Shown in pieces: positions 7,420 to 58,711 of a stretch of 64,000 nucleotides of DNA. Position numbers and translations under genes: made by a program. Source of the DNA: Fusobacterium perfoetens ATCC 29250. GTDB taxonomy: Bacteria > Fusobacteriota > Fusobacteriia > Fusobacteriales > Fusobacteriaceae. The notes below the pieces were generated by a model, which was not told the DNA's origin, did no database searches, and saw nothing but the letters and a program-made list of their open reading frames with translations. Position 1 is the stretch's first letter. Each line of letters starts with the position of its first letter. Where the stretch lies: the NCBI RefSeq assembly GCF_000622245.1, contig NZ_JHXW01000003.1, positions 62,001 to 126,000 of the forward strand, read 5' to 3'.

Positions 7420-7447
7420 AAATATAGTTTAGAGAGGGGAATCGATT

Positions 7448-8110
7448 ATGGTAAATATAAATGAAAAAGAATTATTAGAAGTAATAAAAGAAAAATTAAA
7501 TACTTCTGTTATTGGAGATATATTAGATTCTTATGGATATTATCATCAAATTTTACCTCCACAAATAAAAGCTATGAAAAAAGGACAAAGAATAGTTGGT
7601 TATGCAATGCCTGTATTAATGATAGATGTTTTTGGTCCTCAGGAAAAACCTTTTGGAAGATTAACAGAAGCACTAGACCAAATAGAAGAAAATGAAATTT
7701 ATATTTGTACTGGTGGAACTCAAAGATGTGCTTATTGGGGAGAATTATTAACAACTACTGCTAAATATAGAGGAGGAGTAGGAGCAATAATAAATGGATA
7801 TCATAGAGATACAAGACAAATTGAAAAAATAGATTGGCCTGTATTTAGTATGGGAAGTTATGCTCAAGATTCAGGAGTAAGAACTCAAGTTGTAGATTTT
7901 CGTTGTACTATTGAGATTGGAGGAGTTACTATTCATAATAGAGATTTGATAGTAGCAGACGAAGATGGAGTTGTAGTGGTTCCAAAAGAAGTAGAAGAAA
8001 AAGTTATAGAAGAAGCTTTAGAAAAGATAAAGGGTGAAAATAAATTTGTAGAAGCCATAAAAAACGGAATGAGTTCAACAGAAGCATTTAAGAAATTTGG
8101 GGTTTTATAG
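7448..8110 (+). CDS. RraA/HMG-aldolase family protein
   Basis: A 220-residue member of the RraA superfamily, which includes 4-hydroxy-4-methyl-2-oxoglutarate aldolases (metal-dependent pyruvate-releasing enzymes) and the RNase E inhibitor RraA. Seen: the central block GGVGAIINGYHRDTRQI, which carries the Arg-Asp pair used by the aldolases, and the C-terminal VADEDGVVVVPKE. The usual DG before the RD pair is NG here. It is the last gene of the tct operon, 28 bases after tctA, so an enzymatic role in cleaving the imported acid is more likely than RNA-decay control. The exact substrate is not known. Confidence 0.8.
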   Translation: MVNINEKELLEVIKEKLNTSVIGDILDSYGYYHQILPPQIKAMKKGQRIVGYAMPVLMIDVFGPQEKPFGRLTEALDQIEENEIYICTGGTQRCAYWGELLTTTAKYRGGVGAIINGYHRDTRQIEKIDWPVFSMGSYAQDSGVRTQVVDFRCTIEIGGVTIHNRDLIVADEDGVVVVPKEVEEKVIEEALEKIKGENKFVEAIKNGMSSTEAFKKFGVL

Positions 8111-17986: not shown

Positions 17987-18019
17987 TAAAATTAAAATAA
18001 AGTTTAAGGAGAGATAAAA

Positions 18020-21889: not shown

Positions 21890-24187
21890 TTAATTATTTT
21901 TAAATTTTATATATTCATCAATAGCTTTGGCAGCTTTTTTTCCAGCTCCCATAGCAAGAATTACAGTAGCAGCTCCAGATACAGCATCTCCACCAGCAAA
22001 TACTCCTTCTCTACTAGTTTGTCCATTATCATCAGCTACAATACATTTCCATTTATTAATATCAAGATTTTTTGTAGTAGATGAGATTAATGGATTAGGA
22101 GAAGTTCCAAGAGCCATTATAACAGTATCAACATCCATTATAAAATCAGAATTTTCTAACTCAATAAAAGAAGCTCTACCTGATGAATCTTTTTCACCAA
22201 GAGTAGTTTTGATACATCTCATACCAATGACTTCTCCTTTTTCATTTCCTAAAATTTCTTTTGGAAGAGTAAGAGCATCAATTATAATTCCCTCTTCTTT
22301 GGCATGATGTACTTCTTCTAATCTAGCTGGAAAATCTTTTTCACTTCTTCTATAAACAATATGAGCTTCAGCTCCTAATCTTTTGGCTGTTCTAACGGCG
22401 TCCATAGCTACATTTCCTCCACCAATAACAGCAACTTTTTTTCCTACTTTAATAGGAGTTTCATATTCATCAAGATATCCTTTCATAAGATTTACTCTTG
22501 TTAAAAATTCATTGGCTGAAAGAACACCATTTAAATTTTCTCCAGGAATATTCATAAATTTAGGAAGTCCAGCTCCACTTCCAATAAATACAGCTTCAAA
22601 TCCCTCTTCATCTAATAATTTATCAATAAGTTTAGTTTTTCCTATAATTTCATTTGTTTTAAAAGTAACACCTAATTTTTTGATATTATCTATTTCTTTT
22701 TGAACAACTTCATCTTTAGGTAATCTAAATTCTGGGATACCATAAGTTAAAACTCCTCCAGTTTTATGCAAAGCTTCAAAAATAGTTACATCATATCCCA
22801 TTTTTGCTAAATCTCCAGCTACAGTAAGTCCAGCTGGACCACTTCCAATAACAGCTACTTTATGGTTATTTTTTTTAGAAATTTGAATTTCAAAACTATT
22901 TTTTAATAAGTAATCTCCAACAAATTTTTCAAGTTTTCCAATAGCTACAGCTTCACCTTTTATACCTAAAATACATTTTCCTTCACATTGAGTTTCCTGA
23001 GGACAAACTCTACCACAAACAGCAGGAAGAGAGGTATATTTCATTAAAATTTTTCCAGCTTCATCAATATTTCCTTTTTTAATCTCTTGAATAAAAGCAG
23101 GAATATCTATACTAACAGGACATCCTTGCATACAAAGAGGATTTTTACAATTTAAACATCTACTAGCTTCTTTTTGAGCCTCTTCTAAAGTGTACCCAAA
23201 AGTAACTTCTTTAAAATTTGTAGCCCTTATTATAGGATTTTGTTCTCTTACGGGAACTCTTTTATTTTTTGGAAGATTTTCAAGAGAAGTATACTCTTCT
23301 TCATGATTATCAATTGGACAATCTTTAGCTGAATGAGTATCTCCATCATTTTCTTTAAGTAAAGCTCTTCCTTCTTCTGTTTTATACATCATTTGTCTTC
23401 TCATTGCTTCATCAAAATCAACTAAATGTCCATCAAATTCAGGTCCATCTACACAAGCAAACTTTATTTTATCTCCAATTCTTACACGACAAGCTCCACA
23501 CATTCCTGTTCCGTCAACCATTAGAGGATTAAGACTTACAGTAGTTTTTATATTATATTCTTTTGTTTTTAAACAAACAAACTTCATCATAATCATAGGA
23601 CCAATAGCAACAACACAATCATATTTTTTACCCTGATTTTTTATTAAATCATCAATAACATCAGTTACTAAACCATGATATCCATAACTTCCATCATCAG
23701 TAGTAATATAAAGATTTTCTGCTACAGCTTTCATTTCTTTTTCAAGAATTAAAAGATTTTTAGTTTTTGCTCCAATTATAACATCAGCTTTAAGTCCATT
23801 TTCATGGAACCATTTAACTTGAGGATAAACAGGAGCAGTTCCAACTCCGCCAGCTACAAAAAGAACTTTTTTATTTTTTAAATTTTCTAAATTCTCATGA
23901 AGAAATTCACTTTCTACTCCTAATGGTCCAACTACATCTTGGAAGAAATCTCCTTCATCTAAAGTTCCAATATCTTTTGTGCTTTTTCCTAAAACAAAAA
24001 ATACAATAGTGACAGTTCCATTTTTTCTATCGTAGTCACATATAGTAAGAGGAATTCTTTCTCCAAACTCATCTTTTTTAACAATTAAAAACTGCCCTGG
24101 TTTAGCTGCTAAGGCTAAATCTTTAGCTTCTATATTCATAAGACAAATTTTTTCACTAAGCCACTCTTTTTTTAATATTTTATACAT
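21890..24187 (-). CDS. Fused NfnA-NfnB type NAD(P)H-ferredoxin transhydrogenase / glutamate synthase-like protein
   Basis: A 765-residue fusion. Residues 1-280 resemble PyrK/NfnA: a flavin domain, the VAGGVGTAPVYPQ NAD motif and [2Fe-2S] cysteines C230, C233 and C245. Residues 320-765 resemble NfnB/GltD: two [4Fe-4S] cysteine sets (C344, C347, C352, C356; C391, C395, C401, C405), an FAD site VIGSGPAGL (447-455) and an NADPH site VIGGGNVAMDA. In Thermotoga and Clostridium, separate NfnA and NfnB bifurcate electrons between NADH, ferredoxin and NADPH; fused forms are often annotated as a DHOD electron subunit/glutamate synthase. No glutamate synthase large subunit lies nearby. The LysR gene is 23 bases upstream on the same strand. 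Confidence 0.9.
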   Translation of the reverse strand: MYKILKKEWLSEKICLMNIEAKDLALAAKPGQFLIVKKDEFGERIPLTICDYDRKNGTVTIVFFVLGKSTKDIGTLDEGDFFQDVVGPLGVESEFLHENLENLKNKKVLFVAGGVGTAPVYPQVKWFHENGLKADVIIGAKTKNLLILEKEMKAVAENLYITTDDGSYGYHGLVTDVIDDLIKNQGKKYDCVVAIGPMIMMKFVCLKTKEYNIKTTVSLNPLMVDGTGMCGACRVRIGDKIKFACVDGPEFDGHLVDFDEAMRRQMMYKTEEGRALLKENDGDTHSAKDCPIDNHEEEYTSLENLPKNKRVPVREQNPIIRATNFKEVTFGYTLEEAQKEASRCLNCKNPLCMQGCPVSIDIPAFIQEIKKGNIDEAGKILMKYTSLPAVCGRVCPQETQCEGKCILGIKGEAVAIGKLEKFVGDYLLKNSFEIQISKKNNHKVAVIGSGPAGLTVAGDLAKMGYDVTIFEALHKTGGVLTYGIPEFRLPKDEVVQKEIDNIKKLGVTFKTNEIIGKTKLIDKLLDEEGFEAVFIGSGAGLPKFMNIPGENLNGVLSANEFLTRVNLMKGYLDEYETPIKVGKKVAVIGGGNVAMDAVRTAKRLGAEAHIVYRRSEKDFPARLEEVHHAKEEGIIIDALTLPKEILGNEKGEVIGMRCIKTTLGEKDSSGRASFIELENSDFIMDVDTVIMALGTSPNPLISSTTKNLDINKWKCIVADDNGQTSREGVFAGGDAVSGAATVILAMGAGKKAAKAIDEYIKFKNN

Positions 24188-24210: not shown

Positions 24211-25110
24211 TTAAATTTGTTTATTTTCTTTATTTATAGATAATAAAGCTAATTTTGTAAATTCAGAAATAATATAAGGTTTCTGAGTATTTTTTTTGTA
24301 AGCAATAAAAAATTCTCTTTGGCTATAAGAATTTCTTATTTTATAATATACAACTCCTTCTAATTTTTCTACAGAACCAGGAACAAAGCCAACACCTAAA
24401 TTTTTAGAAACTAATGAGTTTACAGTTTCAAAATCTTTTGTTTCTAAAATACAATTTAGATTAAAATTTAAAGATTCACAAATTTTATCTATATTTTTTC
24501 TAGCTTTTATTCCTTTCATAAGTAAGATAAAGTTTTCATCTTTAAAAGAAGATAAGTCTATAAATTCATCTTTTATATTTGATGTAATAGGATTTGTTTT
24601 AGGAACTGCTAATAAAATATCTTCAGTAACAATCTTTTTATAAATAAGTTTTGGATTAAAATCCACAAAAGCAGATATTACTAAATCAACTTCATCTTCT
24701 AATAATATTTTCTCAAGATTATAAGGAGAATCTTCTATTATTTTTATTTGAACATCTGGAAATAGTTTTCTAAATTCAGGAATAATTTTTGGTAAAAAAT
24801 ATCTTCCATAAAACTGAAAAACTCCTATACCTAAAGTTCTTTTTTTACAACTGGATAAGCCTTCTAATTTTTCTTTTAAAATTTTGACCTCTGATATGAT
24901 TTTTTCACTTTCTTTTAAAAAAAATTCTCCAGCATATGTAAGGGAGACTCCTTTACTAGTTCTTCTAAAAAGTTGAAGTCCTAATTCATCTTCTAGTTTA
25001 TTAATGGATTGACTTAATGCTGATTGACTAATAAAAAGATGTTCTGCTGCTTTAGAAAAATTTTTAAATTGTGCTATATAAAAAACATATTCCATATCTT
25101 TTAAAGTCAT
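24211..25110 (-). CDS. LysR-family transcriptional regulator
   Basis: A 299-residue regulator. The N-terminal helix-turn-helix is FSKAAEHLFISQSALSQSIN, followed by the LysR linker and a type 2 periplasmic-binding-like effector domain. The ATG at 25110 has AAGGAG just upstream. It lies on the same strand and 23 bases before the nfn fusion gene, so the two are probably co-transcribed and the regulator may control its own operon; the effector is unknown. Confidence 0.92.
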   Translation of the reverse strand: MTLKDMEYVFYIAQFKNFSKAAEHLFISQSALSQSINKLEDELGLQLFRRTSKGVSLTYAGEFFLKESEKIISEVKILKEKLEGLSSCKKRTLGIGVFQFYGRYFLPKIIPEFRKLFPDVQIKIIEDSPYNLEKILLEDEVDLVISAFVDFNPKLIYKKIVTEDILLAVPKTNPITSNIKDEFIDLSSFKDENFILLMKGIKARKNIDKICESLNFNLNCILETKDFETVNSLVSKNLGVGFVPGSVEKLEGVVYYKIRNSYSQREFFIAYKKNTQKPYIISEFTKLALLSINKENKQI

Positions 25111-25202
25111 AAATACTCCTTAAAATTTATTATAAGTTTTTCTAATAGTAGTATTATAAATTAATATTTCAAAAAAAGCAAATTTATTGTTATAATTATT
25201 TT

Positions 25203-25309
25203 ATCAAAAGATAGGTATTAAAAGTATTAAGTATTTACCATCTTGTTTCCTTAAACTTATATTATAAAAAATAAAACAGATTGTTAGCCCCTCTCTGTTT
25301 TATTTTTTT
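25203..25309 (+). ncRNA. Candidate small RNA with C-rich terminator loop
   Basis: A possible promoter, TTTCAA (25167-25172)-18 bp-TATAAT (25191-25196), predicts a start near 25203. The RNA would contain a hairpin AAGATaGGTA/TACCATCTT (25208-25217 with 25236-25244, one bulge), a single-stranded TTGTTTCCTT, and a perfect 13-bp terminator stem (25268-25280 with 25294-25306) with a T tract. The terminator loop TTGTTAGCCCCTC can pair with GAGGGG-type ribosome sites, including that of the adjacent alcohol dehydrogenase (near 25518-25527). No plus-strand gene lies between 21839 and this terminator. Its existence as an RNA is inferred. Confidence 0.5.
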
Positions 25310-25484: not shown

Positions 25485-25532
25485 ATTTAATAAGAAAGAT
25501 TTCATAATAAAAAATTTGAGGAGGGGTAAATA

Positions 25533-26717
25533 ATGATGAATTTTAATTATTACACACCAACTAAAGTTATTTTTGGAAAAAATGAAGAAAATAATGTAGG
25601 AAAATTTGTTTCAGATTTTGGAGGAAAAAAAGTTTTAATTCACTATGGGGGAGGAAGTGCTGTTAGAAGTGGATTAATAGATAAAGTAAAGAAATCTTTA
25701 GAAGAATCAGGAATAGAATATGTTGAATTAGGAGGAGTAAAACCAAATCCAAGATTATCATTAATATATGAAGGAATAAAATTGTCAAAAGAAAATGGAG
25801 TAGATTTTATATTAGCAGTTGGAGGAGGAAGTGTAATTGACTCTGCCAAAGGTATAGGATATGGAATATCTAATCCTGAAATAAAAGATGTATGGGATTT
25901 ATATCTAGGAAAAGAAAAGGCTAATACTTGTGCTCCTATTGGAGTTGTTTTAACAATAGCAGCTGCTGGAAGTGAAATGAGTGGAGGAAGTGTTGTAACA
26001 AATGAAGATGGACAAGTAAAAAGGTCATATAATACAGACTATTCAAGACCTAAATTTGCTATAATGAATCCAGAAATTACTTATACATTACCAGAATATC
26101 AAATTTCAAGTGGCTCAGTAGATATAATGATGCATATTCTAGAAAGATATTTTACTCCAGAACCAAACTTAGAAGTTACTGATGAAATTTCTGAAGGAAT
26201 TTTAAGAACAATGATAAAAAATTCAAGACTTTCATTAGAAAATCCTAAAAATTATGATGCTAGAGCTGAAATAATGTGGTGTGGTTCATTGGCTCATAAT
26301 GGACTTACAGGTTGTGGTGGAATTGGTGATTGGGCAAGTCATCAATTAGAACATGAGTTAAGTGGAGTTTATGATGTGGCTCACGGAGCTGGATTAGCAG
26401 CTGTTTGGGGTTCATGGGCTAGATATGTTTATAAAGAAAATCCTAATAAATTTGCAAGACTTGGAGAAAAAGTTTTTGGAATAGAGAAAATTGAAAATGT
26501 TGATAATATGGCTATAAAAACTATAGAAGCTATGGAAAATTTCTTTAGAAGTATAAAAATGCCGATTTCAATAAAAGAATTATTGGATAGAGAAATAACA
26601 AATGAAGAGGTTTTAATCTTAGCTGAAAAATGTAGTAATAATGGTCAAAGAACAATAGGAAGTTTTAAAAAATTAGATAAAGAAGATATGAAAAATATTT
26701 ATTTAATGGCTAGATAA
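25533..26717 (+). CDS. Iron-containing (BdhA/YqhD-like) alcohol dehydrogenase
   Basis: A 394-residue group III metal-dependent alcohol dehydrogenase of the butanol dehydrogenase type, reducing aldehydes with NAD(P)H during fermentation. Seen: the NAD(P) motif VGGGSVIDSAKG (GGGS at 97-100) and metal ligands D197, H201, H270 and H284 (SVDIMMH, SHQLEHE, VAHGAG). It is a single-gene unit with its own promoter and terminator. GGAGGGG precedes the double ATG. An aldehyde such as butanal is likely but not shown. Confidence 0.92.
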   Translation: MMNFNYYTPTKVIFGKNEENNVGKFVSDFGGKKVLIHYGGGSAVRSGLIDKVKKSLEESGIEYVELGGVKPNPRLSLIYEGIKLSKENGVDFILAVGGGSVIDSAKGIGYGISNPEIKDVWDLYLGKEKANTCAPIGVVLTIAAAGSEMSGGSVVTNEDGQVKRSYNTDYSRPKFAIMNPEITYTLPEYQISSGSVDIMMHILERYFTPEPNLEVTDEISEGILRTMIKNSRLSLENPKNYDARAEIMWCGSLAHNGLTGCGGIGDWASHQLEHELSGVYDVAHGAGLAAVWGSWARYVYKENPNKFARLGEKVFGIEKIENVDNMAIKTIEAMENFFRSIKMPISIKELLDREITNEEVLILAEKCSNNGQRTIGSFKKLDKEDMKNIYLMAR

Positions 26718-28631: not shown

Positions 28632-28662
28632 AAAACTGCCAATTTTAATTGGCAGTTTTAAA
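28632..28662. terminator. Bidirectional terminator
   Basis: AAAACTGCCAATT (28632-28644) pairs with AATTGGCAGTTTT (28647-28659). It separates convergent genes and works for either strand. Confidence 0.85.
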
Positions 28663-58594: not shown

Positions 58595-58617
58595 GTGATA
58601 TAAAAATAATAACAAGG

Positions 58618-58683
58618 ATTTCATATAAGCCTATAATATGGTTAGGCGTTTCTACATACAACTGTAAATTGTATACTATGGCC
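58618..58683 (+). ncRNA. Purine riboswitch aptamer, guanine class
   Basis: The aptamer shows the conserved core: CATATAA entry (P1 5' strand), P2 GCCTA/TAGGC with loop AATATGG, the TTTCTAC junction, P3 ATACAA/TTGTAT with loop CTGTAAA, and ACTATG exit. The base that selects ligand is C (58676), so guanine or hypoxanthine rather than adenine is expected. P1 is short (CATA/TATG plus one U-G). An intrinsic terminator follows 30 bases later, implying repression by terminating transcription before the permease gene. Confidence 0.92.
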
Positions 58684-58711
58684 AGCTCATATTTTATTAT
58701 TTTCTGTTAAT

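What the first reader, a model, noticed from the sequence alone, without database searches (positions are those of the whole stretch)
25191..25309. Orphan terminator marks a likely small RNA with a C-rich loop
A perfect 13-bp terminator stands on the plus strand with no upstream plus-strand gene for over 3 kb. It is preceded by a promoter-like pair and one more hairpin, giving an RNA of about 105 bases. Its terminator loop contains GCCCCTC, complementary to G-rich ribosome sites such as GAGGAGGGG before the adjacent alcohol dehydrogenase. Small RNAs with C-rich seeds often block such sites. The location, between a LysR-nfn redox operon and an alcohol dehydrogenase, suggests a redox or fermentation role.
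Basis: partly seen in the sequence, partly recalled or inferred. Interest (0 to 1): 0.62.

Follow-up and report, generated by a model that had tools for sequence, protein, structure and literature searches.

The report
LysR-controlled small RNA aimed at Rnf
A short RNA gene in a Fusobacterium sits back-to-back with its probable switch protein and carries a stretch that base-pairs almost perfectly with the start of the messenger for Rnf, the cell's redox-driven energy pump, so it probably tunes energy metabolism.

Summary
The orphan terminator is real and belongs to a genuine small-RNA gene of about 107 nt (about 25203-25309, +), divergent from a LysR regulator (24211-25110, -). Eight homologous copies were found in 6 of 7 held genomes of the same genus. 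They share a covarying first hairpin, an unpaired linker TTTCCTTAANCTTATA (one copy has one extra A), a covarying terminator with GCCCCT in its loop, and a TATAAG-N5-CTTATA box exactly 43 bases before the -10. Copies without an adjacent lysR have the box too. The LysR orthologue is found in those six genomes only (of 98 in the phylum). The better target is rnfC, first gene of rnfCDGEAB. In all six carriers its leader contains TATAAGTTTAAGGAA, complementary to the linker and touching the Shine-Dalgarno site. Exact matches to this motif occur nowhere else in those genomes except the sRNA genes themselves. The seventh genome lacks LysR and sRNA, and its rnfC site is broken by one deleted base. 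Repression of rnfC is most likely; activation is possible because the site also locks the start codon in a hairpin. No Rfam match. Functionally it resembles GcvA-GcvB and OxyR-OxyS. All evidence is computational.

The parts
25203..25309 (+). Small RNA gene, about 107 nt; 5' end inferred from the -10 box
   Evidence: Conserved in 6 genomes (8 copies); covariation 23 double-changed cells vs 7.2 in shuffles
25131..25147 (.). LysR-type box TATAAGTTTTTCTAATA (T-N11-A type), centred about 64 bases before the inferred start of the RNA; one mismatch to the consensus TATAAG-N5-CTTATA
   Evidence: Present at all 8 copies, always 43 bases before the -10; genome-wide counts
25168..25196 (+). Promoter of the small RNA: weak -35 region, extended -10 TGTTATAAT
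25208..25244 (+). Hairpin 1 (arms 25208-25217 and 25236-25244, variable loop)
   Evidence: Covarying pairs
25246..25261 (+). Unpaired linker TTTCCTTAAACTTATA, the proposed main seed, complementary to the rnfC leader
   Evidence: Kept in 7 of 8 copies apart from one free position; one copy (G003) has an extra A; predicted 69-83% unpaired; rnfC pairing
25266..25308 (+). Intrinsic terminator, 15-bp stem; also works in principle on the other strand
   Evidence: stem changes in compensated fashion
25287..25293 (+). C-rich terminator loop GCCCCTC, probable second seed (GCCCCT kept in all 8 copies)
24211..25110 (-). LysR-type regulator, proposed activator of the small RNA
   Evidence: Pfam HTH_1 and LysR_substrate; present only in the 6 carriers out of 98 genomes
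21890..24187 (-). Fused NADPH-dependent glutamate synthase / DHODB-like NAD-binding protein (Nfn-like), downstream of lysR in G000, G005 and G001
   Evidence: NF009414 above cut-off; synteny
25515..25532 (+). Ribosome-binding region of the alcohol dehydrogenase, possible species-specific target of the C-rich loop
   Evidence: -18.7 kcal/mol, rank 2 of 61 window ORFs; the neighbour is not conserved
25533..26717 (+). Iron-containing alcohol dehydrogenase, neighbour in two of six genomes only
   Evidence: PF00465

Best explanation
It is a trans-acting regulatory RNA whose gene is switched on by the divergently encoded LysR protein, bound to TATAAG-N5-CTTATA at about -64. The unpaired linker 5'-UUUCCUUAANCUUAUA-3' starts pairing at the AAGGAA of the Shine-Dalgarno loop of rnfC mRNA and invades the upstream stem, covering positions -27 to -12. 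This most likely blocks ribosome binding and lowers synthesis of the whole rnfCDGEAB (ferredoxin:NAD+ oxidoreductase) operon when LysR senses its unknown signal. The C-rich terminator loop is a second anti-Shine-Dalgarno seed with more variable targets. Shown by sequence: the gene, its structure, the box with fixed spacing, co-occurrence with lysR, and the complementarity. Inferred: transcription, LysR binding, the direction of regulation, and the signal.
For: Eight copies in six genomes, with 10 of 25 pairs changed on both sides, cells paired 95.9% vs 83.4% shuffled, 0 of 500 shuffles reaching the covariation score. The LysR box lies exactly 43 bases before the -10 in all copies, including two not next to lysR. 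In G006 the only two exact boxes of the genome are the two sRNA promoters. LysR orthologue in 6 of 98 genomes, the same six. rnfC leader TATAAGTTTAAGGAA in all six carriers. Exact genome-wide matches to TATAAGNTTAAGGAA are only rnfC and the sRNA genes, none in G002. Hybrid energies with the cognate leader are -16.4 to -22.4 kcal/mol; 0 of 2000 shuffled leaders reach the G000 value. The rnfC leader shares a 31-nt identical run between G000 and G006, against 5-15 for the other genes compared in the G004 and G006 stretches, the lysR leader with its box included. The rnfCDGEAB operon is confirmed.
Against: No expression data. An exact 15-mer match is expected 0.34 times per genome by chance, so the weight rests on its position at a ribosome site and its conservation. 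In G004 and G006 both sRNA copies mismatch rnfC at the free position N, with no compensating change. G003's sRNA has one extra A. Part of the rnfC leader is also kept in G002, which lacks the sRNA, so the leader has some other constraint too. The leader's own hairpin alone might explain part of the conservation. AAGNTTAAGGA before ATG is not enriched over the reversed control.
Confidence: 0.62

Rival explanations
1. Same sRNA and same rnfC site, but it activates: the rnfC leader hides its start codon in a 15-bp hairpin, and sRNA pairing to the upstream arm frees it (anti-antisense, as DsrA-rpoS).
For: In all six carriers the rnfC AUG is predicted fully paired (unpaired 0.00); blocking the sRNA site raises this to 0.40-0.96. 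In the 23 genomes of other genera it is 0.18-0.79. G002, without the sRNA, lacks this hairpin, although its AUG is also predicted paired (0.02).
Against: The pairing reaches -12, immediately next to the GGAG Shine-Dalgarno core at -11 to -8, where a duplex would be expected to hinder the ribosome. The hairpin is A-U and G-U rich and only predicted.
Confidence: 0.25
2. One reading: the C-rich loop represses the neighbouring alcohol dehydrogenase.
For: 7-8 bp to GAGGAGGGG, -18.7 kcal/mol, rank 2 of 61. The G005 ADH leader carries AAGTTTAAGGAGGGG, matching both seeds.
Against: The dehydrogenase is next to the sRNA in only two of six genomes. GGGG occurs in 6 of 61 window ribosome sites, and another gene (7448) scores better.
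Confidence: 0.2
3. A cis-acting leader or attenuator of the downstream gene rather than a free sRNA.
For: In G000, G005, G001 and G003, and at the second copies, the next gene lies on the same strand.
Against: The next gene differs (adh, lgt, kdsC), and in the lysR-linked copies of G004 and G006 it points the other way (pyrE), so nothing downstream could be controlled in cis.
Confidence: 0.05
4. Only a bidirectional terminator plus lysR promoter; no functional RNA.
For: The terminator has T runs on both strands; in G004 and G006 it also follows convergent pyrE.
Against: Hairpin 1, linker, terminator loop, promoter and box spacing are all conserved, also at second copies away from lysR.
Confidence: 0.04

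Closest known systems
GcvA-GcvB (E. coli, Yersinia; PMC1557403)
   Same: LysR-family activator divergently transcribed from the sRNA it activates; intrinsic terminators.
   Different: No Rfam similarity to GcvB; no amino-acid transporter targets seen; the seed here is U/C- and A-rich, whereas GcvB's is G/U-rich (from memory); no enterobacterial relatives.
OxyR-OxyS
   Same: LysR regulator with a divergent sRNA of about 100 nt, redox theme (from memory); OxyR is among the regulator's nearest solved relatives.
   Different: Regulator scores far below the OxyR equivalog cut-off (137 vs 329 bits); the OxyR cysteine pair is not evident; no OxyS match.
FoxI and FoxJ of Fusobacterium nucleatum (PMC11005410)
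   Same: Fusobacterial sRNAs with a cytosine-stretch seed, FoxJ's in a hairpin loop; act on mRNAs.
   Different: Those are sigmaE-dependent; FoxJ lies upstream of ylmH. Here there is a sigma70-like promoter with a LysR box at a different locus, and the proposed target is rnfC, not fomA.
RoxS/RsaE of Firmicutes (PMC8216469, PMC5419742)
   Same: From memory: redox-linked sRNA with C-rich anti-Shine-Dalgarno motifs, control of central energy metabolism.
   Different: No Rfam match; from memory, RoxS/RsaE is controlled by other regulators (Rex, ResD/SrrA), not a LysR protein; different structure.

Membership tests
LysR-activated divergent sRNA (GcvB/OxyS type of circuit) | sRNA gene divergent from a lysR-type gene | tested here: met
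   Six of six carriers
LysR-activated divergent sRNA (GcvB/OxyS type of circuit) | LysR binding site near -65 of the sRNA promoter | tested here: met
   T-N11-A palindrome at about -64, spacing fixed in 8 of 8 copies; binding itself not tested
LysR-activated divergent sRNA (GcvB/OxyS type of circuit) | Expression depends on the LysR protein | not testable with these tools
   Needs a lysR deletion and northern blot
GcvB or OxyS RNA family proper (Rfam) | Covariance-model match | tested here: not met
   No Rfam match to the sRNA at gathering score or at E up to 5 apart from one chance miRNA
OxyR (regulator) | Equivalog score; two redox cysteines | tested here: not met
   137 bits against a cut-off of 329; one cysteine conserved near the C208 position, none at the C199 position by eye
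FoxI/FoxJ sigmaE sRNAs | sigmaE promoter; FoxJ next to ylmH, der and ffs | tested here: not met
   sigma70-like extended -10; different neighbours
One of the catalogued F. nucleatum FunR sRNAs | Identity to a listed transcript | not testable with these tools
   The 2021 catalogue paper is not held; the named-genome scan found the pattern in only one Fusobacterium record
Trans-acting base-pairing sRNA | Conserved unpaired seed complementary to a conserved ribosome site | tested here: met
   Linker against rnfC leader

The most novel reading that the evidence does not exclude
A lineage-specific LysR-sRNA switch sets the output of the Rnf energy-conserving complex by opening a start-codon-locking hairpin in the rnfC leader, so that the redox pump is switched on, not off, by a small RNA. 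It is duplicated in some species under the same regulator and would be the first sRNA known to control Rnf.
Probability: 0.22. Interest if true: 0.75.

Novelty: new member of a known kind. Interest (0 to 1): 0.58.

Why it matters
Rnf is central to energy conservation and virulence in Fusobacterium nucleatum (PMC10790702, PMC12153266). One search of the held library for an sRNA pairing with rnfC returned a single paper and no such report. If true, this gives a compact, testable circuit (regulator, box, sRNA, one conserved target) and a new sRNA family in a phylum where, in the papers found here, only the sigmaE sRNAs FoxI and FoxJ have been followed to their targets.

Tried and rejected
Leptotrichiaceae-like matches to 25196-25235 look like coincidental coding sequence, with no lysR nearby. 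Rfam gave nothing but a chance miRNA match. AAGNTTAAGGA before ATG is not enriched over the reversed control, so general target enrichment could not be shown. pyrF carries an 11-nt match in G000, G005 and G001 but not in G004 or G006, so it was not promoted to a main target. Other exact boxes: ligA coding sequence in G003 and G005 and another coding site in G004. Non-genus hits of the two-seed pattern do not show the conserved linker and look like chance. A small ORF in the RNA was excluded: the longest is 9 codons. The published F. nucleatum sRNA catalogue was not available.

Full report
The observation. The plus strand at 25266-25308 holds a perfect 15-bp terminator with a 13-nt loop TTGTTAGCCCCTC and a T run. 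No plus-strand gene lies upstream for more than 3 kb. A sigma70-like pair with extended -10 stands at 25168-25196, but such pairs are as common in shuffled sequence, and GCCCCTC is expected about once in this window by chance. The fold of the finding has z = -2.7. Single-sequence evidence was therefore suggestive only.

Conservation. A DNA search found the region with its lysR neighbour in three more genomes of the genus at 99, 86 and 84% identity. A covariance model from these four found four more copies: one beside the lysR orthologue in each of G004 and G006 (57-60% protein identity) and a second copy in each, between an Orn/Lys/Arg-decarboxylase-like gene and kdsC. A second model rescored the eight copies and found no other convincing one among 40 related genomes. 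In the eight-row alignment 10 of 25 pairs changed on both sides and none of 500 shuffles reached the covariation score; sliding the partners by one to three columns destroyed it. The alignment was fitted to the model, so this leans somewhat towards the structure, but the same changes are visible by eye in the raw sequences.

Anatomy. Every copy has a -10 box, a first hairpin, an unpaired linker TTTCCTTAANCTTATA (one extra A in G003), an A-rich stretch that enters the terminator stem, and GCCCCT in the terminator loop. Lengths are 100-115 nt from the inferred start. The linker and loop are predicted largely unpaired. There is no open reading frame longer than nine codons in the window copy.

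Control. A palindrome TATAAG-N5-CTTATA (T-N11-A, the general LysR-type pattern, from established knowledge) lies exactly 43 bases before the -10 in all eight copies, centred near -64; the window copy has one mismatch. It is rare: none to four exact sites per genome. In G006 both sites are the two sRNA promoters; in G004 two of four are. The rest are coding sequence, a site upstream of an FMN-dependent lactate-dehydrogenase-like gene in G004, and a site about 410 bases upstream of a D-lactate-dehydrogenase-like gene in G001. Chance alone would give about 1.4 per genome, so the argument rests on position and fixed spacing. The lysR orthologue occurs in exactly the six carriers out of 98 genomes of the phylum; G002, the seventh genus member, lacks both. 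The gene on the far side of the sRNA changes: alcohol dehydrogenase, lgt, or convergent pyrE. The convergent case excludes a cis leader.

Target. A search for linker complements before start codons found rnfC in all six carriers. Genome-wide, TATAAGNTTAAGGAA with no mismatch occurs only at the sRNA genes and at rnfC in the carriers, and nowhere in G002. In G002 the site reads TATAGTTTAAGGAAGG, one base deleted. rnfC leaders of other genera that were read do not carry it. RnfC identities place G002 nearer to G000, G001 and G003 than G004 and G006 are, so loss of lysR and sRNA in G002 is the simpler history (inference). Predicted hybrids reach -16.4 to -22.4 kcal/mol, against a mean of -9.0 for 2000 shuffled leaders, none as strong as the G000 value. 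The rnfC leader shares 31 identical bases between G000 and G006; the other genes compared share 5-15 in the G004 and G006 stretches, the lysR leader with its box included, and one kdsC comparison with G003 shares 18. The operon is rnfCDGEAB.

Direction. The pairing covers -27 to -12 and touches the Shine-Dalgarno sequence AAGGAAGGAG, which favours repression. But in all six carriers the start codon is predicted to be locked in a 15-bp hairpin whose upstream arm and loop are the sRNA site, and blocking that site frees the AUG in silico. So activation cannot be excluded. I give repression about 0.6 and activation about 0.25 of the total.

Limits. No expression data exist here. An exact match of this degenerate 15-mer is expected 0.34 times per genome by chance. 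The free position N mismatches rnfC in G004 and G006. Part of the rnfC leader is conserved in G002 as well. Only seven genomes of the genus are held; one matching record is named, Fusobacterium sp. cluster1_bin.39, whose contig has the same length as that of G003. Whether the RNA is among the catalogued F. nucleatum sRNAs could not be checked.

Comparison. It works like GcvA-GcvB (PMC1557403) and OxyR-OxyS: a LysR protein with a divergent sRNA. It is not a member of those RNA families (no Rfam match), and the regulator is far below the OxyR cut-off. Cytosine-stretch seeds are described for FoxI and FoxJ (PMC11005410), which are sigmaE-dependent; FoxJ lies elsewhere, and FoxI's seed is described as lying in a linear stretch. 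I therefore file it as a new member of a known kind, with an unusual target.

Noticed in passing
58601-58698 (+): Purine riboswitch aptamer, Rfam RF00167, 59.6 bits, the only Rfam match in the window.
   Followed up: no
G004:C19:6571-6676 (L036) and G006:C4:59295-59400 (L037): Second sRNA copy with its own LysR box, between an amino-acid-decarboxylase-like gene and kdsC; sibling sRNAs under one regulator.
   Followed up: yes
rnfC leader, G000:C2 about 192943-192990 (minus strand; L141): Start codon of rnfC locked in a 15-bp A-U/G-U hairpin with the Shine-Dalgarno site in the loop, in all six carriers; looks like a translational switch of its own.
   Followed up: partly
G004:C4:8681-8697 (L108) and G001:C32:17548-17564 (L107): Further exact LysR boxes upstream of an FMN-dependent lactate-dehydrogenase-like gene and a D-lactate-dehydrogenase-like gene; may hint at a lactate or redox signal for the regulator.
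   Followed up: partly
7430-7447 (+), before gene 7448-8110: Ribosome site AGAGAGGGGAATCG of an RraA/aldolase-like gene has the best complementarity in the window to the sRNA's terminator loop (-19.7 kcal/mol).
   Followed up: no
18000-18010 (+), pyrF leader: 11-nt perfect match to the sRNA linker complement (AAGTTTAAGGA), also in G005 and G001 but not in G004 or G006.
   Followed up: partly
G003:C95:11948-11972 (L179): ThiC-like gene (named from memory of its N-terminus) whose ribosome site carries TATAAGTTTAAGGAG, one mismatch to the rnfC-type site.
   Followed up: no
28632-28659: Perfect 12-bp bidirectional terminator between convergent genes.
   Followed up: no
25246-25261 and 25131-25147: The sRNA linker ends in CTTATA, the same six bases as a half-site of the LysR box; coincidence or shared origin unclear.
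   Followed up: no
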